Positions 6,944 through 64,000 of a DNA stretch of 64,000 bases are shown here, piece by piece. Source of the stretch: Burkholderiales bacterium (GTDB taxonomy: Bacteria > Pseudomonadota > Gammaproteobacteria > Burkholderiales > Casimicrobiaceae); contig JADZDD010000025.1 of assembly GCA_020851235.1 (NCBI GenBank), positions 248,001-312,000 on the forward strand, in the 5' to 3' direction. Both the position numbers and the translations under genes were made by a program. Positions within the stretch are counted from its first letter, which is position 1. Each line of letters opens with the position of its first letter. The notes beneath the pieces were generated by a model. That model made no database searches. It was not told the origin of the DNA and worked only from the letters and a program-made list of their open reading frames with translations.

Positions 6944-7864
6944 GTGAGCGAGGCGGGCGCTGTGGAGGAGTTGCCGGCAACGTCCGCGTCGTTTCGCGCG
7001 GCGGCCGGGGCATTATATGTGGTGGCCACGCCGCTGGGTAACCTGCGCGACGTGACACTGCGTGCGCTCGACGTCCTGCGCAGCGCCGATGTCGTCGCCG
7101 CCGAGGATACGCGAACCACGGCGCGCCTTCTTGCTCGCTACGGCATCGCGACGCACGTCCTTGCGCTGCACGCGCACAACGAGGCGCAGCGCAGTGCCGG
7201 CGTCGTCGCGCGCCTCGCCCGCGGCGAGAGTGTCGCTCTCGTGAGCGACGCCGGCACCCCTGCCGTGAGCGATCCAGGGGCGCGTCTCGTCCACGCGGTA
7301 CGCGCCGCGGGGCACCCCGTGATCCCCATTCCCGGACCATCGGCGGTGACCGCGGCGATTTCGGCGGCCGGCGTGCGCGCGGGTGCGTTCGTCTTCGTCG
7401 GCTTCCTGCCCGGGCAGACGAAGGCGCGCCGCACGCTGCTCGCAAGCCTTGCGGCGTTGCCGGCCGCGCTCGTCTTCTACGAGGCGCCGCATCGCGTGCG
7501 TGCCACGCTGCGCGAGCTCGCGCCGGCGCTGGGCGCGTCGCGCACCGTCGTGATTGCACGCGAACTCACCAAGATCCACGAGACGATCGCCACGATGCCG
7601 CTCGGCGACGCCGCGGCGTGGGTCGGCGCCGATGCGCAGCGCGAGCGCGGCGAGTTCGTCCTCGTCGTCGATCGGGCCGAGGAGGGCGAGGACGACGGTC
7701 TTGCGGCCGACGTCGATGCCGAGTGCGGTCGCTGGTTGCCGGCGCTGCTCGCGGAGGTCTCGCCCGCGCGCGCCGCGCGCATCGTCGCGACCGTGACCGG
7801 CGCCGCGCGCGACGTCGTCTATCGGCGCGCGTTGCAGTTGAAGCCGGAGGCCGGTGACGACTGA
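6944..7864 (+). CDS. rsmI: 16S rRNA (cytidine-1402-2'-O)-methyltransferase
   Basis: RsmI methylates the ribose of C1402 in 16S rRNA using S-adenosylmethionine. The tetrapyrrole-methylase fold is clear: LYVVATPLGNLRDVTLRALDVL, AAEDTRTTARLL, ALVSDAGTPAVSDPG, IPIPGPSAVTAAIS and FYEAPHRV. GTG at 6944 is chosen because GAGGG lies about nine bases upstream. It gives a 306-residue protein; in-frame GTG 6962 or TTG 6971 are alternatives. The proposed start leaves almost no room for two separate divergent promoters with lpoA. Confidence 0.92.
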   Translation: MSEAGAVEELPATSASFRAAAGALYVVATPLGNLRDVTLRALDVLRSADVVAAEDTRTTARLLARYGIATHVLALHAHNEAQRSAGVVARLARGESVALVSDAGTPAVSDPGARLVHAVRAAGHPVIPIPGPSAVTAAISAAGVRAGAFVFVGFLPGQTKARRTLLASLAALPAALVFYEAPHRVRATLRELAPALGASRTVVIARELTKIHETIATMPLGDAAAWVGADAQRERGEFVLVVDRAEEGEDDGLAADVDAECGRWLPALLAEVSPARAARIVATVTGAARDVVYRRALQLKPEAGDD

Positions 7865-50722: not shown

Positions 50723-52039
50723 ATGCCGTTTCGAATCGGACCCGCCCGTGCCGTGGCCTTTGCCGCGCTCTTCGGGCTGACCGGTGCCGCCAGCGCCGCC
50801 ACCGACATCCAGTTCTGGCACTCGATGACCGGCGCCCTCGGCGACCGCGTCGCGAGCATCGCCGATCGCTTCAACAAGAGCCAGAGCGACTACCGGATCG
50901 TGCCCGTGTACAAGGGGACGTATCCCGAGTCGATGACCGCGGCGATCGCCGCGTACCGCGCGAAGCAGGCGCCGCACATCGTGCAGGTGTTCGAGGTCGG
51001 CACGGCAACGATGATGTACAGCAAGGGCGCGATCAAGCCGGTGTACCAGCTCATGGCCGACGCGGGCCAGAAATTCGATCCAAAGGCGTACATCTCGGCG
51101 GTCTATGGCTACTACGCGACGCCGGACGGCAAGCTCCTGTCGATGCCGTTCAACAGCTCGACGCCCGTCTTCTACATCAACAAGGATGCGTTCCAGAAGG
51201 CAGGTCTCGATCCCAACCAGCCACCCAAGACCTGGGCCGCCGTCGCTGCCGCGGCAGCGAAGCTCAGGGTCAGCGGCGAGAAGTGCGGCTTCACCTTCGG
51301 CTGGCCGTCGTGGACGCAGCTCGAGAACTTCAGCGCCTGGCACAACCTGCCGTTCGCGACCAAGCAGAACGGTTTCGGTGGCCTGGACGCGCGCCTTGCG
51401 ATCAACGCGCCGCTGCAGGTGCGCCACATCGGCAACCTCAAGGAGTGGATGGACAAGGGCTACGTCACCTACGCCGGGCGCACCAACGAGGCCGAGTCGA
51501 AGTTCTACTCGGGCGAGTGCGGCATGCTGATGTCGAGCTCGGGGGCCTTCGCCAACATCACGCGCAACGCGAAGTTCAAGTTCGGCGTGTCGCAGATGCC
51601 GTACTACCCTGACATCGAAGGTGCACCGCAGAACTCGATCATCGGCGGGGCGAGCCTGTGGGTGCTGAGCGGGCACAAGGCCGACGACTACAAGGGCGTC
51701 GCGAAGTTCTTCGCGTTCCTGTCCAATCCCGAGCTCCAGGCCGAGTGGCACCAGGCGACGGGCTACCTGCCGATCACCTACGCGGCGTACGAGCTCACCA
51801 AGAAGTCGGGCTTCTACGACAAGACGCCGGGCCCGAACGTCGCGGTCGAACAGATGATCGTGAAGACGACGTCGAACTCGCGCGGTATCCGTCTTGGCAA
51901 CTTCGTGCAGGTGCGCAATGCCATCGAGGAGGAACTCGAAGCGGTGTGGACCGGCAAGAAGCAGCCCAAGCAGGCGCTCGACGACGCGGTCAAGCGCGGC
52001 AACGAGATCCTCGTCAAGTTCCAGCAAGCCAACAAGTGA
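50723..52039 (+). CDS. ugpB: glycerol-3-phosphate ABC transporter, binding protein
   Basis: A 438-residue periplasmic binding protein with a signal peptide ending at GAASA (about 24). The UgpB pattern is strong: TDIQFWHSMTGALGDRVASI, YKGTYPESMTAAIAAYRAKQ, VQVFEVGTATMMYSKGAIKP, LLSMPFNSSTPVFYINKDAF and YYPDIEGAPQNSIIGGASLW. It binds sn-glycerol 3-phosphate and related diesters. An AGGAGG site precedes the ATG. It heads a ugpB-A-E-C-Q operon. Confidence 0.96.
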   Translation: MPFRIGPARAVAFAALFGLTGAASAATDIQFWHSMTGALGDRVASIADRFNKSQSDYRIVPVYKGTYPESMTAAIAAYRAKQAPHIVQVFEVGTATMMYSKGAIKPVYQLMADAGQKFDPKAYISAVYGYYATPDGKLLSMPFNSSTPVFYINKDAFQKAGLDPNQPPKTWAAVAAAAAKLRVSGEKCGFTFGWPSWTQLENFSAWHNLPFATKQNGFGGLDARLAINAPLQVRHIGNLKEWMDKGYVTYAGRTNEAESKFYSGECGMLMSSSGAFANITRNAKFKFGVSQMPYYPDIEGAPQNSIIGGASLWVLSGHKADDYKGVAKFFAFLSNPELQAEWHQATGYLPITYAAYELTKKSGFYDKTPGPNVAVEQMIVKTTSNSRGIRLGNFVQVRNAIEEELEAVWTGKKQPKQALDDAVKRGNEILVKFQQANK

Positions 52040-52197
52040 CGCAGCGCCACGCGGGCGGCGCATCGCGCTGCCCGCGCGGTCGCGCCGTCCCGCAGCTCCG
52101 CGGCACGCCGTGCCGCGACCTCGTCGTCAAACGCCGGGCGCGAACGCGACGCCGCGACGCCGATCGCCCCCGCACCGCCGCCCTTCGCTGATCGCGC

Positions 52198-53085
52198 ATG
52201 TCCACCCAGAAGCGGGTCATCTTCAAGTCGACGTGGCTGCCCTATGCGCTGGTCGCGCCGCAACTCGCCATCACGCTCGTCTTCTTTTTCTGGCCGGCGG
52301 GGCAAACGCTCATCCAGTCGATGCAGCTCGAGGACGCGTTCGGCGCGACGACGCAGTTCGTCGGGCTCGACAACTTCCGTGCACTCTTCAACGATGAGGG
52401 CTATCTCAACTCGGTCAAGGTGACGATCGAGTTCTCGGCCGCGGTCGCCGTTCTCGGACTCTCGATCGCGCTTCTGCTCGCGGCGATGGCCGATCGTGTG
52501 CTCCGCGGCGCGACGTTCTACAAGACGCTGCTCATCTGGCCGTACGCCGTCGCCCCGGCGGTGGTCGCGGTGCTCTTCGTCTTCCTGTTCAGCCCCACGC
52601 TCGGCATCATCGCGCACGCACTCACCGTGTTCGGCATCGAGTGGAACCACCTGCTCGACGGCGACCAGGCGATGCTGCTCATCATCATGGCCGCGGTGTG
52701 GAAGCAGATCAGCTACAACTTCCTCTTTTTCCTGGCCGGACTGCAGGCGATCCCGGCCTCGCTCATCGAGGCGGCGGCGATCGACGGCGCCGGCCCCTTG
52801 CGCCGCTTCTGGACGATCGTGTTTCCGCTGCTGTCACCGACGACGTTCTTCCTCCTCGTGATCAACGTCGTCTACGCGTTCTTCGACACCTTCGCCATCG
52901 TCGATGCCGCGACGCAGGGCGGCCCGGCGCGCGCCACCGAGATCCTCGTCTTCAAGGTGTATCAGGATGGTTTCAAGGCGCTCGACCTCGGCGGGTCGGC
53001 CGCGCAGTCGGCGATCCTCATGGCGATCGTCATCGGGCTGACGATCGCGCAGTTCCGCTACATCGAGCGCAAGGTGCAGTACTGA
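52198..53085 (+). CDS. ugpA: glycerol-3-phosphate ABC transporter, permease UgpA
   Basis: A 295-residue permease with six hydrophobic segments, beginning [20 protein letters not shown]. The cytoplasmic EAA loop, [20 protein letters not shown], contacts the ATPase. The C-terminal pair of helices ends IERKVQY. It starts 158 bases after ugpB and overlaps ugpE by one base. Confidence 0.95.
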
Positions 53086-53933
53086 TGATCGAGCGCCGTC
53101 CCGTCCTCACGTTCACCCGCCACACGCTCCTGCTGCTCGGCGTGGCGGTGGTCGCGTTCCCGATCTACGTGACCTTCGTCGCATCCACGCTGACGCTCGA
53201 CCAGGTCCTGGCGGCGCCGATGCAGCTTTGGCCCGGGTCGCAGCTCATCGAGAACTACACGTACGTGCTGGGGCACGGATCGACCAAGGGGGCATCGGCG
53301 CCGGTCGGGCAGATGATGTTCAACAGCCTCGTCATGGCGCTGTCGATCGCCATCGGCAAGATCGCCATCTCGCTCCTGTCGGCGTTTGCCATCGTCTATT
53401 TCCAGTTTCCGTTCCGCAACACGATCTTCTGGATGATCTTCATCACGCTCATGCTGCCGGTGGAGGTGCGCATCCTGCCGACGTACAAGGTCGTGGCCGA
53501 CCTCGGCATGATCAACACCTACGCCGGGCTCACGATCCCGCTCATCGCGTCGGCGACCGCGACGTTCCTGTTCCGCCAGTTCTTCCTCAGCATTCCCGAC
53601 GAGCTCGCCGAGGCGGCGCGCATCGACGGCGCGGGCCCCATGCGCTTTTTCTGGGACGTCGTCGTGCCGCTGTCGCGCACGTCGATCGCCGCGCTCTTCG
53701 TGATCCAGTTCATCTACGGCTGGAACCAGTACCTGTGGCCGCTGCTCGTCACCACCGACGAGTCGATGTACACCACGGTGATCGGGATCAAGCGGATGAT
53801 CACCGGCGGTGACGCGGCCACCGAATGGCAGCTCGTGATGGCCACCGCGATGCTCGCGATGCTGCCGCCGGTGCTCGTCGTCCTGCTGATGCAGAAGTGG
53901 TTCGTGAAGGGTCTGGTCGAGACCGAAAAATGA
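53085..53933 (+). CDS. ugpE: glycerol-3-phosphate ABC transporter, permease UgpE
   Basis: A 282-residue permease that starts in a TGATG overlap with ugpA. It shows the expected topology and motifs: [20 protein letters not shown], the EAA loop [20 protein letters not shown], and [20 protein letters not shown]. The C-terminal [13 protein letters not shown] is typical of UgpE. It pairs with UgpA in the membrane. Confidence 0.96.
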
Positions 53934-53988
53934 GCGTGGGCGGCAGTGCACGCCCGCGAGTGTCCTTCCCCGCAAGTCCGTTGACGCC

Positions 53989-55056
<1,068 letters not shown>

Positions 55057-55125
55057 TCACCGATGCCCATGGGCGCCGTCGCCGGGTCCGGCGTCGCGCG
55101 GCGCCACGACGCTGGAGCCCTCACC

Positions 55126-55896
55126 ATGCCCACTGCCCCCAACGCACTTCCTCCCTGGCCGTATCCGCGCCTGTGCGCGCATCGCGGCGCCGGCAAGCTC
55201 GCGCCCGAGAACACGTTGACGGCGATGCGCGTCGGCCACGCGCACGGCTACACGATGGTCGAGTTCGACGTCAAGCTCGCGGCCGACAACGTCGCCTTCC
55301 TGCTGCACGACGCGACGCTCGAGCGCACGTCGAGCGGTCGCGGCCGCGCGGATGCGCTGCCGTGGCGCGAGCTGTCGCGGCTCGATGCCGGCGGTTGGCA
55401 TTCGGCCAAGTATGCGGGCGAGATGCTGCCGACCTTCGCCGCGATCGCGCGCTGGGCGCGCGCGCACACGGTCGCCTGCAACGTCGAGATCAAGCCCACG
55501 CCCGGGCGCGAGCGCGAGACCGGCGCCGCGGTCGCGCTCGATGCGCTCGCGCTGTGGCGCGACGCCCACGTCTTGCCGCTCATGTCGTCGTTCGAGGAGG
55601 ATGCCCTCGAGGGGTGCCGGCTGGCCGCACCCGCGCTGCCGCGAGCGCTTCTGGTCGACGAGCTCCCGGCCGACTGGCTGGCGCGGCTGCGCCGTCTCGA
55701 GTGTGTGGCGCTCGATGCCAACCACGAGGCTCTCACGCGCGAGGTGGTCGAGGGCGCGCATCGCGAGGGTTTTCGCGTGTGCACGTGGACGGTCAACGAT
55801 CCCGCCCGCGTCGCCCAGGTGGGCGCCTGGGGCGTCGACACCATCATCACCGACGCGATCGACGTCATCCCTGCGAGCGCGCTCGACGCGGCGTAG
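55126..55896 (+). CDS. ugpQ: glycerophosphodiester phosphodiesterase
   Basis: A 256-residue GDPD TIM-barrel enzyme that releases glycerol 3-phosphate from deacylated phospholipids. The catalytic and metal motifs are LCAHRGAGKLAPENTLTA (His, Arg, Glu), VEFDVKLAADNVAFLLHDATL, VEIKPTPGRE and TWTVNDPARV. No signal peptide is seen, so it is cytoplasmic. ATG at 55126 has GGAG eight bases upstream. It closes the ugp operon, so the product of import feeds it directly. Confidence 0.95.
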   Translation: MPTAPNALPPWPYPRLCAHRGAGKLAPENTLTAMRVGHAHGYTMVEFDVKLAADNVAFLLHDATLERTSSGRGRADALPWRELSRLDAGGWHSAKYAGEMLPTFAAIARWARAHTVACNVEIKPTPGRERETGAAVALDALALWRDAHVLPLMSSFEEDALEGCRLAAPALPRALLVDELPADWLARLRRLECVALDANHEALTREVVEGAHREGFRVCTWTVNDPARVAQVGAWGVDTIITDAIDVIPASALDAA

Positions 55897-58711: not shown

Positions 58712-58766
58712 CCGCCCCGGTGCCCGCGCGACCTCCGACGCGGACCACAGCGTGGAGTTCCCCGTC

Positions 58767-59576
58767 TTGCGTCTCACCCTGTTCGCCAAGGCCAATCACG
58801 ACGTGCACGATTCGCTGCACTCGCTTCGCGTGAATGGGGTGCTGGGCTTCAACGGCATCAATGAGATCGTTCGCGTGCGCCATCCGGGGTGGACCGTGCG
58901 GGTCCGGCACGAGACCTGCGCACGCTTCGACCAGCTCGCCGCGGCCGACGGGCGCATTCCGGCGAGCGTGGCGCAGCGCGGCCTCGCGCTCGGCAATTAC
59001 CCTCTTGCGTCGCAGTTTGGCGGCGCGCTGTACACGACGCCGGCCGATGCGGTCGTCCTCTCGCTGCAGCCCGACTTGTACTTCAGGCTCGCCCGCCATC
59101 GTCACGACGGCTTCGTCTTCCATCCCGAAGGCCGGCATGGCTGGTCGGCGGCCGACCAGGCGTGGCTGCGCGACGACTTCGACGTGTCTCCCGCGCCCGA
59201 TGCGGCGACGTCGATGCATCATCTCGAGACCATCGTGACGCGGCTGCGCGCGCAAAGCGACGCCCCCGTGCTCGTCTACAACCTTTCGTCGGTGGTGCCG
59301 GGCGATACCGTGCACTGCTACGCCGGATTGGGCGAGACGCTGTCGCTTCGCATCCGCCGCTTCAACCTCGCATTGTGCGAGCTCTCGCAGCGCATCGGCA
59401 TCTCGGTGATCGACGTCGATGCCATCGTGGCGCGGGCCGGCGTGGCGGTGGCCAAGCTCGACACGCGGCACCTGCACGCGGAAGGCGCGCGACGCGTCGC
59501 CGCCGAAGTCGTCCGCGTCCTGGAGGATCTCGGCTGCTTCGAGGATCGCGCCACGGCGCGGCGACCGGAGGCATGA
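58767..59576 (+). CDS. SGNH/GDSL hydrolase-like protein (paralogue 1)
   Basis: A 269-residue protein without a signal peptide. The C-terminal half looks like an SGNH/GDSL hydrolase: APVLVYNLSSVV, HCYA, RIRRFNLALCELSQRIGISV, IDVDAIVARAG and a DxxH block, DTRHLHAEGARRVA. The N-terminal candidate for the catalytic Ser is in HDVHDSLHSL. It is related to the genes at 60646 and 63520. TTG at 58767 is chosen because GGAG lies nine bases upstream; GTG 58752 is an alternative. The stop overlaps the glycosyltransferase start. The substrate is unknown; esterase or O-acyl transfer activity is possible. Confidence 0.7.
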   Translation: MRLTLFAKANHDVHDSLHSLRVNGVLGFNGINEIVRVRHPGWTVRVRHETCARFDQLAAADGRIPASVAQRGLALGNYPLASQFGGALYTTPADAVVLSLQPDLYFRLARHRHDGFVFHPEGRHGWSAADQAWLRDDFDVSPAPDAATSMHHLETIVTRLRAQSDAPVLVYNLSSVVPGDTVHCYAGLGETLSLRIRRFNLALCELSQRIGISVIDVDAIVARAGVAVAKLDTRHLHAEGARRVAAEVVRVLEDLGCFEDRATARRPEA

Positions 59577-60646
59577 TGCGGGCGAGTGTCGTCATCCGCT
59601 CGAAGGACGAGGCCGATCGGCTGCGGCTCACCCTTGCGTCGCTCGCGCGACAGACGGTGCGGCCCGAGGTGGTCGTCGTCGACGACGGCTCGTCCGATGC
59701 AACGGGCGCGGTCATCGCCGCGGCGGCGCGCGAGATGCCGGTCGTGGCGCTGCGCCATCCCGTGGCGCGGGGCCGGGCCGCGGCGTCCAACGCCGGAGCG
59801 CGCGTGGCCAGCGGTGACCTCCTCATCTTTCTGGACGGGGACACGCTCGCCTCTCCCGACATGGTCGAGCGCCACGTGGCGGCGCACGCGGCGCAGCCCA
59901 CGGCAAGGCTTTTCGGACGCGGCGGCCGTTTCCACTTTCGCGGCACCCGCTTCCTGCTCGATCCGGAAACGTGCACGCCGCGGCCGGGCGAGGAGGCGAA
60001 TGTGGCGCGCTGGTCCGCGGCGGAGCGCGCGCGCAACGGGGTGACCCAGGCGCAGATTCGCGAGGACTTCACCGCGCTCGCCGCGCGTGCGAGTCTCGGG
60101 ATCTACCCCGGCGCGGGCCCGCAGATGCTGGAGCGCATCGAGCTCGACGCGCTGCGCCATCACCCCGAGTGCGAAGTCCTGTGGGCCGCCGCATGCGGGG
60201 CCAACTTCTCGGTGCGCCGCGATGCCTTCGTCGCCGCCGGAGGCCTGCACGACGACATCGACAACAACGAGCATCGCGCCTTCGCGCTGCGCATGGTGAG
60301 GCACGGCGCGCGCATGGTTGCCGTCGAGGATGCGCGGGCGTTTCACATGACGCACCGCCGTGGCTGGCGCGACCCGCTGCAGAACACGACCTGGGAGCGG
60401 GTGTTCTACGCGAAGTATCCCGAACCCGCGGTGAAGCTGCTGTCGGTGTTCTGGTCTTGCCTCGATGCGAACGTCGACATCCCCGCGGCCGCGCGCATCG
60501 AATCGCTGCCGGCGCTCGCCGCGGCAGCGCGCGGCGAGCGCGACGTCGACTACGACGCGATCCGGCGCGGGCTCGGGCTGCCGGATCTCGGTGTGGATCC
60601 GGGCAGCGCCCACGGCGCGGCGTCGTCGCAGGCGGCGAGGCGCTGA
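59573..60646 (+). CDS. family 2 glycosyltransferase
   Basis: A 357-residue GT-A glycosyltransferase starting in an ATGA overlap. It has the N-terminal nucleotide-sugar fold VVIRSKDEADRLRLTLASLA, VVVVDDGSSDAT, GRAAASNAGARVASGDLLIF and the DxD in FLDGDTLASPD. The acceptor-side motif is CGANFSVRRDAFVAAGGLHD with DNNEHRAFALRMVRHGA. No transmembrane segments are evident. The donor and acceptor sugars are unknown. It is embedded between two SGNH-like genes and ahead of E1 genes, an unusual context. Confidence 0.88.
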   Translation: MMRASVVIRSKDEADRLRLTLASLARQTVRPEVVVVDDGSSDATGAVIAAAAREMPVVALRHPVARGRAAASNAGARVASGDLLIFLDGDTLASPDMVERHVAAHAAQPTARLFGRGGRFHFRGTRFLLDPETCTPRPGEEANVARWSAAERARNGVTQAQIREDFTALAARASLGIYPGAGPQMLERIELDALRHHPECEVLWAAACGANFSVRRDAFVAAGGLHDDIDNNEHRAFALRMVRHGARMVAVEDARAFHMTHRRGWRDPLQNTTWERVFYAKYPEPAVKLLSVFWSCLDANVDIPAAARIESLPALAAAARGERDVDYDAIRRGLGLPDLGVDPGSAHGAASSQAARR

Positions 60647-61275
60647 TGGCGCGAAGTCTCGTCATCGCCGCCGCGGTGGACGCCTGCGAGCGACCCGTCG
60701 TCGAGCGTGCGGCCGTACTCCTCGCCGACGTGCTGCGTGCCTGCGGTGACGCCGAGGTCGAGGTGACGGCACGCTTCGTCGGCGACATCGCGGCGCTCGT
60801 GCGCGAACCGGCACCGGACTGCGCGGTGGCGTCGCTCCTCCCCGAGCTTGCCGGGGACGAGCCGGTGGCCGCGGTCGACGAGCGCTGGCGTGAGGCGCTC
60901 GCCGCATGGCCCGCAACGATGGCGCCGGTGCTCGTCTGCACGATCTTCCGGCACGTCGATCCGACGCTTCCAGGTCCGCAACGCGAGGCAGTGCGCGAGC
61001 GCATCCGTCGCCTCACGCTCGCCGCGATCGGGATCTCGCACGATACCGGCGCGCACGTCGTCGACTTCGATCGCACGCTCGCGCACGTGGGCGCGCGCAC
61101 GCTGGCGAGCGACCATCGTTTCGGCAGCGCCGTCGCCATCGACGTCGCCGCCCGCACGCTCGTGCGCAGCCTGCTCGCGGTGGCGGGCGAGGCGAGCATC
61201 GCCGCCGACGTCGCGAGCCGCGCCGAGGCGCGCATCGGACAGCCGTGGGACGCGCTGGCCGGGCGCGAACCATGA
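60646..61275 (+). CDS. SGNH-like protein, degenerate (paralogue 2)
   Basis: A 209-residue protein starting in a TGATG overlap with the glycosyltransferase gene. It aligns by eye with the other two SGNH-like proteins: APVLVCTIFRHV, RIRRLTLAAIGISHDTGAHV, VDFDRTLAHVGARTLASDH. The block V Asp of DxxH is not conserved (ASDHRF in place of DTRH), so it may be catalytically altered or a non-catalytic partner. No signal peptide is present. It may act with the glycosyltransferase or the E1 proteins; the function is unknown. Confidence 0.6.
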   Translation: MARSLVIAAAVDACERPVVERAAVLLADVLRACGDAEVEVTARFVGDIAALVREPAPDCAVASLLPELAGDEPVAAVDERWREALAAWPATMAPVLVCTIFRHVDPTLPGPQREAVRERIRRLTLAAIGISHDTGAHVVDFDRTLAHVGARTLASDHRFGSAVAIDVAARTLVRSLLAVAGEASIAADVASRAEARIGQPWDALAGREP

Positions 61276-62198
61276 CCGCAGCCGCCGAACTCCTGCGCAC
61301 GATGCAGCGCATCCGCGCCTTCGAGGAGGCGCTCGCGCAGCGCGCGGATCGCGGCTTTCAGCTCTTCTCGCTGGGACAGGAGGCCGTGGCGGTGGGCGTG
61401 TGTGCGGCACTCGGGCCCGACGATCAGCTCCTCACCAGCGGCCGCTCGATCGCGGCGGCGCTCGCCCGCGGCGTCGATCCGGTCGCGGTCATGGCCGAGC
61501 TCCTGGGCAAGCAGACGGGCACCAATCGGGGACGGGGCGGGCGCGGGCATCTCGCCCAGCCGTCGCGGGGCTTCTTCGGCGCGCACGCGGTCGTGGCCGG
61601 CAACCTCACGATCGCCGCCGGCGTCGCGCTGGCGCTGTCCATGCGTGGGCGCGGCATCGCGGCGTGCATGTTCGGCGACGGCGCCTGCGGCGCGGGTGCA
61701 TTGCACGAGACGATGAACGTCGCCGCCGTGTGGCGCCTGCCGCTCCTGCTCGTCTGCGACAACAACGGCTACTCGATCAGCACGCCACAGGCGGCCGCGC
61801 TCGCGCCGCAGCCGCTTGCCGCGCTCGCCGAACCGTTTCGCATGCCCGCACGAAGCGTCGACGGCATGGACGTCGAAGCCGTGCGCGATGCCGCGGTGGC
61901 GCTCGTCGCGCACGTCCGCGGCGGCGGGGGGCCCGCGTTCCTCGAGTGCCGGTCGGCACGTTACGCCACACACTCGACGTCGACCCGCGAGACACGCCCG
62001 GACAGCGAACGGGCCGCGGACCGGGCACGCGATCCGATCCGCGCCCAGCAGCAACGGTGCGAGGCGCGCGGTGAGGCCGACGCGGCACGGTGCGCCGCGT
62101 GGGACGCGGAGGCTCGCGCCGCGGCTGCCGCCGCGTTGCGCGCCGCCGACGCGGCGCCGTATCCTCTGGCGGCGTCGGTGCTCGAGGACGTCCGGTGA
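61272..62198 (+). CDS. 2-oxoacid dehydrogenase E1 component, alpha subunit
   Basis: A 308-residue thiamine-diphosphate-dependent E1 alpha subunit (PDH/BCKDH/acetoin dehydrogenase type), overlapping the previous gene by four bases. ThDP motif: FGDGACGAGALHETMNVAAV then CDNNGYSIS. Other family marks are SLGQEAVAVGVCAAL and GRGHLAQPSRGFFGAHAVVAG. The usual GHS near the C-terminus reads THS (ARYATHSTST), and the last 60 residues are Ala/Arg-rich, so regulation or partner contacts may differ. It pairs with the next gene; the 2-oxoacid substrate is unknown. Confidence 0.88.
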   Translation: MTAAAELLRTMQRIRAFEEALAQRADRGFQLFSLGQEAVAVGVCAALGPDDQLLTSGRSIAAALARGVDPVAVMAELLGKQTGTNRGRGGRGHLAQPSRGFFGAHAVVAGNLTIAAGVALALSMRGRGIAACMFGDGACGAGALHETMNVAAVWRLPLLLVCDNNGYSISTPQAAALAPQPLAALAEPFRMPARSVDGMDVEAVRDAAVALVAHVRGGGGPAFLECRSARYATHSTSTRETRPDSERAADRARDPIRAQQQRCEARGEADAARCAAWDAEARAAAAAALRAADAAPYPLAASVLEDVR

Positions 62199-63181
62199 GC
62201 GCGGCTGCGCCGGCGCCGCGGGTGTTCTTTCGGGAGGCGATTGGCCGGGCGCTCGCCGAGGCGATGGGGAGCGATCCGACGCTCGTGCTCTTCGGCCAGG
62301 ACATCGGCCGCTTCGGTGGTGCGTATCGCGAGTTCACCGGCCTCTTCGAGCGCTTCGGCGCGCAGCGGGTGCGCGACACGCCGGTCGCCGAGGCGGCGAT
62401 GATCGGCATCGGCGTCGGTGCGGCAGCCGCGGGCCTGCGCGCGCTCGTGAGCATCACCTACATGGACTTCCTGATGCTCGGGCTCGATCCGCTCGTCAAC
62501 TACGCGGCGAAGGCCTGCTACAAGACCGGTGGCCAGGTCCGCGTGCCGCTCGTCGTCAAGGCGACCGCCGGTGCGCGCGGGCAGGGCGTTGCGCACTCGC
62601 AGTGCATCGAAGCGTGGCTCATGAGCGTTCCCGGGCTCACCGTGGTGGCGCCGGCCACGGTCGCGGACGCCTACGGGCTCCTCAAGTCGGCATTGCGCCA
62701 CGACGGCCCCGTCGTCTTCGTCGATCACAAGCGCCTGTATCCGACCGCAGGGGAGTTGCCGACCGACGCCGCGGAGGTGCCGTTCGGTCAGGCACGTGTC
62801 TGTCGTCGCGGCGACGCCGTGACGCTCGTCGCCCACGCGTACATGGTGCGCGTGGCCCTTGCCGCCGCCGACGAGCTCGCGCGCGAGGGCATCGCCTGCG
62901 ACGTGGTCGACCTGCGCAGTCTCGCGCCGCTCGACGTGGCCACACTCGCGGCGTCGGTGGCGCGTACCGGCGCCCTCGTCACGGTCGAGGAAGGGCAGGC
63001 GACGTGCGGTGTGGGCGCGGAAGTCGCGGCGCGGGTGCGTGAGGCGCGCGGCGGCGAGCCGTTTCGCGTCGCGCGCGTCGCCGCCTTGCCGGCGCCGGTC
63101 TCGTCGAATCCGATCCTCGAGGCTGCGTGCCTGCCGGATGCCGCGCGCGTCACCACGGCGGTGCGCACGCTGCTATCCTGA
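62195..63181 (+). CDS. 2-oxoacid dehydrogenase E1 component, beta subunit
   Basis: A 328-residue E1 beta subunit starting at GTG in a four-base overlap with the alpha gene. Transketolase-like motifs: VLFGQDIGRFGGAYREFTGL, DTPVAEAAMIGIGVGAAAAG, GQGVAHSQCIEAWLMSVPGL, ALRHDGPVVFVDHKRLYPTA. The C-terminal domain has VTVEEGQATCGVGAEVAARV. With the alpha subunit it would decarboxylate a 2-oxoacid and reductively acylate a lipoyl group. The lipoyl protein encoded next is the likely acceptor. Confidence 0.92.
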   Translation: MSAAAPAPRVFFREAIGRALAEAMGSDPTLVLFGQDIGRFGGAYREFTGLFERFGAQRVRDTPVAEAAMIGIGVGAAAAGLRALVSITYMDFLMLGLDPLVNYAAKACYKTGGQVRVPLVVKATAGARGQGVAHSQCIEAWLMSVPGLTVVAPATVADAYGLLKSALRHDGPVVFVDHKRLYPTAGELPTDAAEVPFGQARVCRRGDAVTLVAHAYMVRVALAAADELAREGIACDVVDLRSLAPLDVATLAASVARTGALVTVEEGQATCGVGAEVAARVREARGGEPFRVARVAALPAPVSSNPILEAACLPDAARVTTAVRTLLS

Positions 63182-63209
63182 CCGTCCACCTTCCTTCCCC
63201 CTGCTGCCG

Positions 63210-63515
63210 ATGCTCTACCAGCTCGCCGTACCGACCCCGATCGAGGATGTCGAGGAACTCCGCGTCCTCGAGTGGCACGTGGCGCCGGGCCACGCCTTCG
63301 CCCCGGGCGACCTCGTGGTCGAACTGGAGACGCACAAGGCGGTGGTCGAGGTGCGGGCGGCGCGTGCCGGCATCGTGCGCAGCATCCTCGCACCGGTCGG
63401 CGATTGGCAGCGACTGGGTCGGCCGCTCGCCGTCGTGAGCGACACCGTGGACGAGCCGCTGCCGGATGCGGCCGACACCCTCGCGGTCATGCACGTCGAC
63501 TTCGAGGTGACGTAG
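63210..63515 (+). CDS. stand-alone lipoyl-domain carrier protein
   Basis: A 101-residue protein that is one lipoyl/biotinyl-attachment domain and nothing more. Core: VLEWHVAPGHAFAPGDLVVE then LETHKAVVEVRAARAGIV, with the modifiable Lys 43 where the canonical DKA reads HKA. Typical E2 proteins continue with a subunit-binding domain and a catalytic domain; both are absent. It is 28 bases downstream of E1 beta. It may carry the acyl group made by E1 to an unlinked or non-canonical acyltransferase. Biotin attachment is less likely because no AMKM motif is present. Confidence 0.85.
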   Translation: MLYQLAVPTPIEDVEELRVLEWHVAPGHAFAPGDLVVELETHKAVVEVRAARAGIVRSILAPVGDWQRLGRPLAVVSDTVDEPLPDAADTLAVMHVDFEVT

Positions 63516-63519
63516 GACC

Positions 63520-64000
63520 TCATCGCGTGCCGGCGCGGTGCTCGCGCTGGCGCGGCACGAATCCCGGGACGTCGCCTTCGTGCAGGATGCGCACGATCTC
63601 GTCACGCGTGGCCTGCTGCAGCACGCCGCTCGAGTGGACGCGATCGGGAATGTGCTGTCGGGCGCCGAATTCCGCAGCCAACGCATCGCCATCGACGATG
63701 CGAATGCCGTGCGAGCGCGAAAGATCGTGCAGCATTGCGTTGGTTTCGCGCGCCCGCACGGTGCCGAGCGTCTTGCCGAGCGGACGCGGGAACGGCGCGT
63801 AGCACTGCACCTGCTCGGTCCCCAGCGTCGATACCGCGTTGAGCACGAGAACCTGCGTCGTGCCGCGTGCGCGCACGGCGTCGACCAGCATCCCGAGATC
63901 GCGCGCGACGTCGGTGAGCGAGCGGCGGACCTGCTCGAAATTGGCGCGCAGCCACGCATGGAACGCGGGACCCGTCTCGCCCAGGCGGTAGCCGTGAATC
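63520..64000 (-). CDS. SGNH/GDSL-like protein (paralogue 3), 3' part
   Basis: The frame is open to the right edge of the window, so only the last 160 codons are seen. It shares the C-terminal SGNH-like pattern of the genes at 58767 and 60646: TQVLVLNAVSTLG, QCYA, a helix with LHDLSRSHGIR, VDGDALAAEFGA and a DxxH block, DRVHSSGVLQQ. The DxxH Asp and His are intact, so this copy may be active. It converges on the lipoyl gene with four bases between the stops. The full domain layout and start lie outside. Confidence 0.65.
   Translation of the reverse strand, partial: IHGYRLGETGPAFHAWLRANFEQVRRSLTDVARDLGMLVDAVRARGTTQVLVLNAVSTLGTEQVQCYAPFPRPLGKTLGTVRARETNAMLHDLSRSHGIRIVDGDALAAEFGARQHIPDRVHSSGVLQQATRDEIVRILHEGDVPGFVPRQREHRAGTR

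What the first reader, a model, noticed from the sequence alone, without database searches (positions are those of the whole stretch)
58767..64000. Compact SGNH - GT2 - SGNH - E1 alpha/beta - lipoyl carrier cluster without E2 or E3
Five genes overlap by 1-4 bases (ATGA, TGATG, GTGA junctions) and a lone lipoyl domain follows. Seen directly: a glycosyltransferase, SGNH-like proteins, ThDP E1 subunits and a 101-residue lipoyl protein, but no acyltransferase E2 domain and no E3. Established: E1 alpha/beta reductively acylates a lipoyl lysine. Inference: the acyl group on the carrier could be handed to an SGNH-type O-acyltransferase/esterase acting on the glycan built by the GT2, giving a 2-oxoacid-dependent glycan acylation system rather than central metabolism.
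Basis: partly seen in the sequence, partly recalled or inferred. Interest (0 to 1): 0.75.

Follow-up and report, generated by a model that had tools for sequence, protein, structure and literature searches.

The report
E1-lipoyl gene cassette without E2/E3
A block of ten genes, found as an insertion in a few Burkholderiales bacteria, carries the front end of a pyruvate-dehydrogenase-like machine together with a sugar-transfer gene and acyl-handling proteins instead of the rest of that machine, and may use it to build a special product rather than to make energy.

Summary
SGNH1–GT2–SGNH2–E1alpha–E1beta overlap by 1 or 4 bases; a 101-aa lipoyl protein follows 28 bp later; no E2 was found nearby. 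The cluster does not end at the window edge: a 459-aa SGNH-like protein, a second lipoyl-like protein without the lysine, and two transglutaminase-like proteins follow. The ten genes form a 9.2-kb insert between a ZIP-like gene and pgeF; 4 of 4 sister genomes examined lack it at that site. It recurs in the same order in a second genome (72–85% aa identity, nine genes measured) and, rearranged but together, in two genomes of another genus. SGNH1 and SGNH3 occur in the same 4 of 64 family genomes. E1 catalytic residues and the lipoyl lysine are conserved. Best reading: E1 loads an acyl group from a 2-oxoacid onto the free lipoyl protein, which donates it in a specialised, glycan-linked pathway. 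The acceptor is more likely a transglutaminase-like protein or SGNH3 than SGNH1, because the canonical SGNH serine motif was not found. Substrate, lipoylation, transfer and product are unproven. Main rival: E1 as carboligase making a two-carbon-branched sugar.

The parts
58752..59576 (+). SGNH1, SGNH/GDSL-like protein (start GTG 58752 or TTG 58767)
   Evidence: Lipase_GDSL_2 24.3 bits, below cut-off 32.9; 4 of 4 orthologues match that family at E<=0.1, the G580 one above cut-off; D-x-x-H block kept, canonical GDS not found
59576..60646 (+). Family 2 glycosyltransferase
   Evidence: Glycos_transf_2 79.9 bits; DDGS and DGD motifs present
60646..61275 (+). SGNH2, degenerate SGNH-like protein
   Evidence: hhalign to SGNH1 probability 95.9 over 71 columns; no D-x-x-H at the aligned place
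61272..62198 (+). ThDP-dependent E1 alpha subunit
   Evidence: E1_dh 182.7 bits; GDG...NN and HSTS loop in 3 of 3 full copies (the G577 copy is cut by a contig end and was left out)
62195..63181 (+). E1 beta subunit
   Evidence: Transket_pyr and Transketolase_C above cut-off; AHSQ histidine and TPVAE/APVAE glutamate in 4 of 4
63210..63515 (+). Free-standing lipoyl carrier protein, 101 aa, ET[HY]KA
   Evidence: Biotin_lipoyl in 5 of 5 copies at E<=0.01; lysine in 5 of 5
63520..64000 (-). SGNH3, 459 aa, continues to 64899 outside the window (C25:311520-312899). Beyond it, in window-extended coordinates: lip2 64924-65277 (-), TGL1 65295-66635 (+), TGL2 66679-67959 (+)
   Evidence: SGNH3 C-terminal half homologous to SGNH1, 34%, hhalign 98.4; lip2 is lipoyl-like with no lysine at all in the window genome; TGL1/2 Transglut_core 60.9 and 57.1 bits, cut-off 23

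Best explanation
A self-contained, mobile cassette for specialised acyl transfer. Step 1: E1alpha/beta decarboxylates a 2-oxoacid (pyruvate most likely, inferred) and reductively acylates the lysine-bound lipoyl group of the 101-aa carrier. Step 2: the acyl thioester is passed to a cassette enzyme that can hold it covalently, either a transglutaminase-like protein (Cys-His-Asp intact) or SGNH3, instead of to an E2 and CoA. Step 3: it ends on a product assembled with the cassette's glycosyltransferase(s), probably a glycoconjugate. lip2, a lipoyl-like protein without the lysine, and the degenerate SGNH proteins would act as docking or scaffold parts. Dihydrolipoyl would be reoxidised by the cell's own E3 (inferred; no E3 search was made). 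Shown: gene content, linkage, insertion, selection, conserved E1, lipoyl and transglutaminase residues. Inferred: lipoylation, substrate, transfer route, acceptor, product.
For: Ten-gene insert between a ZIP-like gene and pgeF, the same site being without it in 4 of 4 sister genomes examined (of 20 genus genomes lacking the cassette). Same order in G623/SJ632. Same core plus a GT4 and a second kind of GT2 in G580 and, over two contigs, G577. SGNH1 occurs in 4 of 64 family genomes, SGNH3 in the same 4 plus one weak hit in G625 that lies in an ORF without any other cassette homologue on its short contig. Lipoyl lysine 5 of 5, E1 catalytic residues kept, TGL triad 5 of 5 copies examined. No E2 hit with two valid E2 queries. 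Island E1s form their own clade apart from two other E1 pairs of the cell (support 1.000). A precedent for E1-to-lipoyl-to-non-CoA transfer exists (SclQ1-4 / QncN-L-M, PMC6335953, passages). A distant Planktothrix plasmid has two SGNH homologues either side of a lipoyl-like protein, near GT and carrier-protein genes.
Against: No product or activity is known. No transport, polymerase or nucleotide-sugar gene in the insert, so a glycan is inferred from one GT2 (plus GT4/GT2 in relatives). Canonical SGNH serine not found. The residue before the lipoyl lysine is H or Y rather than the usual D, so lipoylation is not assured. The Planktothrix locus has no E1 and its lipoyl-like protein is not found by tblastn with lip or lip2. 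The SGNH1 structure model failed (mean pLDDT 35.6). TGL1 of SJ632 is split across frames. The cassette was found in one family only.
Confidence: 0.45

Rival explanations
1. [quoted passage not shown]
For: E1-like pairs in glycosylated-antibiotic clusters are assigned this role in avilamycin, paulomycin and kibdelomycin (PMC4425429 passages; PMC12247030 section 7). The cassette has GT2 and, in relatives, GT4.
Against: A lipoyl protein with its lysine is kept in all four genomes, two copies in one; the word lipoyl has 0 occurrences in the main text of PMC4425429 and PMC12247030. No keto-sugar-forming enzyme among the ten proteins. Does not explain the transglutaminase-like genes.
Confidence: 0.2
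2. Accessory E1 plus lipoyl domain that works in trans with one of the cell's own E2/E3 sets, i.e. ordinary 2-oxoacid oxidation with a new E1 specificity; neighbours unrelated.
For: The genome has 4 E2 catalytic domains and other E1s.
Against: E1 and lipoyl protein stay with SGNH, lip2 and TGL genes across two genera and more than one genomic site, but not with E2. The E1 trees place the island apart from two other E1 pairs of the cell.
Confidence: 0.12
3. Small-molecule natural-product locus: the acyl-lipoyl is joined by the transglutaminase-like enzymes to an amine, with glycosylation as tailoring, no cell-surface glycan involved.
For: E1s related at 41-50% (local identity) sit in carrier-protein or NRPS loci (Streptomyces fungicidicus and Methylocystis with E2 and ACP; Streptomyces NBC_01361 NRPS). 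TGL triads intact. Transglutaminase-like amide synthesis from carrier thioesters (AdmF of andrimid) is recalled; one search found no paper on it.
Against: No ACP, NRPS or adenylation gene in the insert. In the small E1 trees the island is not clearly sister to the carrier-protein group.
Confidence: 0.18

Closest known systems
QncN/QncL/QncM and SclQ1-4 two-carbon acyl loading (quinocarcin, scleric acid)
   Same: E1-type ThDP subunits charge a lipoyl domain and the acyl group goes to a non-CoA acceptor in a specialised pathway (PMC6335953, passages)
   Different: Those have an E2 acyltransferase domain and an ACP; the cassette has neither, and adds SGNH, TGL and GT genes
alphaKADH2 sugar-branching E1 pairs (AviB1/B2, Pau11/12, KbDH)
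   Same: E1alpha/beta-like pair in a cluster with glycosyltransferases
   Different: No lipoyl protein mentioned there; no keto-sugar enzymes here
Pyruvate / acetoin / branched-chain 2-oxoacid dehydrogenase complexes
   Same: E1alpha/beta and lipoyl domain homologous; catalytic residues kept
   Different: No E2 core and no E3 in the cassette, lipoyl domain free-standing
MBOAT-SGNH polysaccharide O-acyltransferases (e.g. PatA/PatB)
   Same: SGNH-like proteins in an acylation setting (PMC12148441, start of abstract in the listings only)
   Different: No membrane acyltransferase partner among the ten proteins; canonical SGNH serine not found

Membership tests
2-oxoacid dehydrogenase complex | E1alpha/beta with ThDP motif and acylation histidines | tested here: met
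2-oxoacid dehydrogenase complex | E2 with catalytic 2-oxoacid_dh domain in the cluster | tested here: not met
   No hit with two valid E2 queries in L009, L015, L041-L045, window, L016 (two of the four queries were read on the wrong strand and do not count; no positive control); none in the Pfam scan of ten cassette proteins
2-oxoacid dehydrogenase complex | E3 in the cluster | tested here: not met
   None among the ten cassette proteins of the window genome; flanks and relatives were not searched with an E3 query (none was extracted)
Lipoyl carrier | Biotin_lipoyl match with target lysine | tested here: met
   5 of 5 copies
Lipoyl carrier | Lysine is lipoylated in the cell | not testable with these tools
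   needs mass spectrometry
SGNH hydrolase/acyltransferase | Block I Gly-Asp-Ser nucleophile | tested here: not met
   No GDS at the expected place in SGNH1 (4), SGNH2 (3) or SGNH3 (4) orthologues; SGNH3 has a conserved LGICE that may be the place; placement rests on sequence alignment only
SGNH hydrolase/acyltransferase | Block V D-x-x-H | tested here: met
   SGNH1 4 of 4 and SGNH3 4 of 4 Burkholderiales copies; SGNH2 0 of 3 at the aligned place; Planktothrix homologues 1 of 2
SGNH hydrolase/acyltransferase | SGNH fold | tested here: inconclusive
   AlphaFold2 model of SGNH1 from two sequences at mean pLDDT 35.6
Transglutaminase-like | Transglut_core with Cys-His-Asp | tested here: met
   60.9 and 57.1 bits, cut-off 23; triad in 5 of 5 copies examined
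QncN/L/M-type acyl loading | E2 acyltransferase domain plus ACP | tested here: not met
alphaKADH2 sugar-branching carboligase | Carboligation of pyruvate to keto-sugar | not testable with these tools
   needs enzyme assay
FkbH N-terminal domain | Profile match | tested here: inconclusive
   Pfam E 0.049 for one Planktothrix homologue; hhalign 8.6, 23.8 and 0.5%

The most novel reading that the evidence does not exclude
A mobile cassette in which a free lipoyl protein, not CoA or ACP, is the acyl donor for building a glycoconjugate: E1 charges it straight from a 2-oxoacid, and a cysteine-nucleophile enzyme (transglutaminase-like, or SGNH3 with a conserved Cys in place of the SGNH serine) takes the acyl group by thioester exchange, with a lysine-less lipoyl fold as docking module. 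That would be an acyl-transfer route independent of E2 and CoA.
Probability: 0.25. Interest if true: 0.85.

Novelty: new variant of a known kind. Interest (0 to 1): 0.6.

Why it matters
Acyl groups on cell-surface sugars are normally drawn from acyl-CoA or ACP (recalled). A dedicated E1-lipoyl pair with no E2 would be a third donor system, would tie glycan decoration directly to 2-oxoacid pools, and would show that the lipoyl arm can serve biosynthesis without the acyltransferase core that defines the classic complexes. The cassette is small and cleanly bounded, so it can be tested as a unit. Seven searches of the open PMC library listed no paper whose title or abstract start describes such a cluster; two searches showed only 20 of 95 and 10 of 47 papers found, and subscription papers and preprints were not searched.

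Tried and rejected
Ordinary PDH operon cut by the window edge: rejected. The next genes are SGNH3, lip2, TGL1, TGL2, then genes recognised from sequence as pgeF, rluD, bamD and dinG (these names, and ZIP and phaC upstream, are recalled and come from no family search), with no E2 hit.

Wider distribution: SGNH3 in 1 of 200 order genomes, 1 of 398 phylum genomes, 1 of 399 order genomes with the four-row profile, each time only the window genome; 5 hits in 64 family genomes, 4 of them real (the fifth, G625, looks by eye like a lipocalin-type hydrolase). These samples overlap and the large searches scored only part of the first-look candidates, so absences are soft. A weak SGNH1 hit in G171 and a profile hit in G449 have no cassette around them. 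A viral-contig scan gave nothing. Plasmid searches: only Planktothrix for SGNH1, nothing for SGNH3, one 13% partial match for TGL1, 98 records at under 60% identity for the lipoyl protein, the annotated ones listed being mostly E2 genes. The Planktothrix lipoyl-like protein found only itself in plasmids and nothing in phages.

I first took the Planktothrix lipoyl-like protein for lysine-less, from a MAFFT alignment. On checking, phmmer alignments to solved E2 lipoyl domains put its EEEK lysine on the lipoyl lysine (E 5e-6), whereas MAFFT with the cassette lipoyl proteins puts it in an insertion. So it may be a true carrier; the lysine-less claim is kept for the four cassette lip2 copies only.

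Structure: SGNH1 model unusable, so no fold search was made; the SGNH3 job was never accepted and was dropped. Solved-structure search with the SGNH profile gave only chance-level matches; TGL2 gave none. FkbH_N kinship is suggestive only. A lipoyl-like N-terminus of SGNH3 was suspected and not supported (2.2%). Defence-system scan of seven proteins empty. The SGNH3 LGICE lined up with the SGNH2 DACE/ADSE motif in 1 of 3 MAFFT modes, so the Cys-nucleophile idea is weak; two of four E2 queries were on the wrong strand and are not counted.
Full report
What is there. The window is G000:C25:248001-312000 of a 3.9-Mb genome. Reading 54001-74000 in extended window coordinates (L009) gives, on the + strand, SGNH1 (58752 or 58767-59576), GT2 (59576-60646), SGNH2 (60646-61275), E1alpha (61272-62198), E1beta (62195-63181) and a lipoyl protein (63210-63515), then on the - strand SGNH3 (63520-64899) and lip2 (64924-65277), then on the + strand TGL1 (65295-66635) and TGL2 (66679-67959). 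So the finding is confirmed and is larger than reported.

Identity of the parts. Pfam places GT2, E1alpha, E1beta, the lipoyl protein and both TGL proteins above its cut-offs; NCBIfam agrees on E1 and lipoyl, below its equivalog cut-offs. The SGNH assignment is weaker: below the Pfam cut-off for SGNH1 in the window, above it for the G580 orthologue (35.9 against 32.9 bits), with 4 of 4 SGNH1 and 3 of 4 SGNH3 orthologues matching Lipase_GDSL_2 at E up to 0.1 (the SGNH3 of the window genome is the one without). Profile comparison links SGNH1 to SGNH3 (98.4%) and to SGNH2 (95.9% over 71 columns). lip2 is lipoyl-like: 97.2% to lip, and 4 of 5 members of its alignment match an acetoin-dehydrogenase E2 model. 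In the four cassette copies the lipoyl hairpin reads DLS..AAQDCPP with no lysine there.

Catalytic residues. E1alpha keeps GDG...NN and a histidine in an HSTS loop, E1beta the AHSQ histidine and the TPVAE/APVAE glutamate. That these serve ThDP binding and reductive acylation is family knowledge (recalled); the alignments to human PDH E1 show the matching stretches. The lipoyl lysine is kept in 5 of 5 copies, as ETHKA or ETYKA. TGL Cys, His and Asp are kept in the 5 copies examined; SJ632 TGL1, which is split between frames, and a fragment at the end of a G577 contig were left out of that count. The canonical GDS of SGNH enzymes was not found in any of the three SGNH-like proteins; D-x-x-H is kept in SGNH1 and SGNH3 only. 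SGNH3 has an invariant LGICE where block I may lie, which would put a Cys at the serine position, but the match to SGNH2 there appears in one of three alignment modes.

It is a unit. In G580 of another genus the core is SGNH1-SGNH2-E1alpha-E1beta-lip facing lip2-SGNH3, with one TGL, a GT4 and a GT2 beside it; in G577 the pieces lie on two short contigs, with two lipoyl copies and E1alpha cut by a contig end; SGNH2 itself was not seen there. Identities to the window proteins in these two are 30-76%. In the family, 4 of 64 genomes have SGNH1 and the same 4 have SGNH3 (a fifth hit being unrelated by context). In four sister genomes of the window's genus, rluD, pgeF, ZIP and phaC homologues are adjacent, with 32-135 bp between the aligned ends of pgeF and ZIP, exactly where the insert sits here and in SJ632. 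So the insert has clean ends and holds ten genes. Insertion rather than loss elsewhere is the simpler reading; no tree of the genus was made. GC is 71.9% against 70.1% around it, so composition does not mark it as foreign.

No E2 or E3 seen. Two valid E2 catalytic queries found nothing in L009, L015, L041-L045, the window or L016. The genome has four E2 domains elsewhere and other E1s, one E1 pair lying at a contig end and possibly completed on another contig. The island E1s form their own clade in small E1alpha and E1beta trees (support 1.000) with no firm sister group.

Wider relatives. A Planktothrix agardhii plasmid carries two SGNH homologues (27-29% identity) and between them a 140-aa lipoyl-like protein (Biotin_lipoyl E 0.003, below cut-off; E2 lipoyl domains at E 5e-6), with glycosyltransferase, sulfotransferase, TPR, AMP-ligase, ACP and FAD-oxidoreductase genes nearby, the AMP-ligase and oxidoreductase apparently truncated. 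Whether its lysine sits at the lipoyl position depends on the alignment: yes, no. E1, lip and lip2 queries give no hit in that locus. This suggests that SGNH plus a lipoyl-like protein is an older association and that E1 is one way to feed it; ACP chemistry may be another. One distant case is thin evidence.

How it may work. E1 acylates the free lipoyl protein; a cassette enzyme takes the acyl group; the product is built with the glycosyltransferases. The transglutaminase-like pair is the best candidate because its triad is intact and that fold works through an acyl-cysteine (family knowledge, recalled). SGNH1, SGNH2 and lip2 may dock carriers. None of the transfer steps is shown. The nearest documented logic is the QncN/L/M and SclQ1-4 loading system, which has an E2 acyltransferase domain and an ACP (PMC6335953, passages read). 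The most serious rival is the alphaKADH2 carboligase (PMC4425429 passages; PMC12247030 section 7), where E1-like pairs add two carbons to keto-sugars; those texts mention no lipoyl protein and no keto-sugar enzyme is in the insert.

Verdict. Real, conserved, inserted as a block, and functionally unusual; mechanism plausible but unproven. New variant of a known kind, interest 0.6.

Noticed in passing
L016 (NZ_LR882947.1 488-22989): Planktothrix plasmid with two SGNH homologues either side of a lipoyl-like protein, with TPR, sulfotransferase and glycosyltransferase genes; AMP-ligase and FAD-oxidoreductase genes look truncated.
   Followed up: partly
G000:C10:110103-112008 and G000:C22:16593-18077: E1alpha/beta at one contig end and an E2 with lipoyl domain near another contig end; possibly one operon broken by the assembly.
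   Followed up: partly
L015:2537-4190 and L041:1166-4129: Two tandem paralogous proteins in SJ632 seem by eye to share a WW..ESGWG-type module with the C-terminal repeats of a subtilisin-like protein in G580.
   Followed up: no
window 50723-55896: By eye, sugar/glycerol-phosphate type ABC transporter genes followed by a glycerophosphodiester phosphodiesterase-like gene, also partly seen beside phaC in L015.
   Followed up: no
L043:2041-2343 and 7090-7392: G577 has two copies of the lipoyl protein, one facing SGNH3 and one after E1beta.
   Followed up: partly
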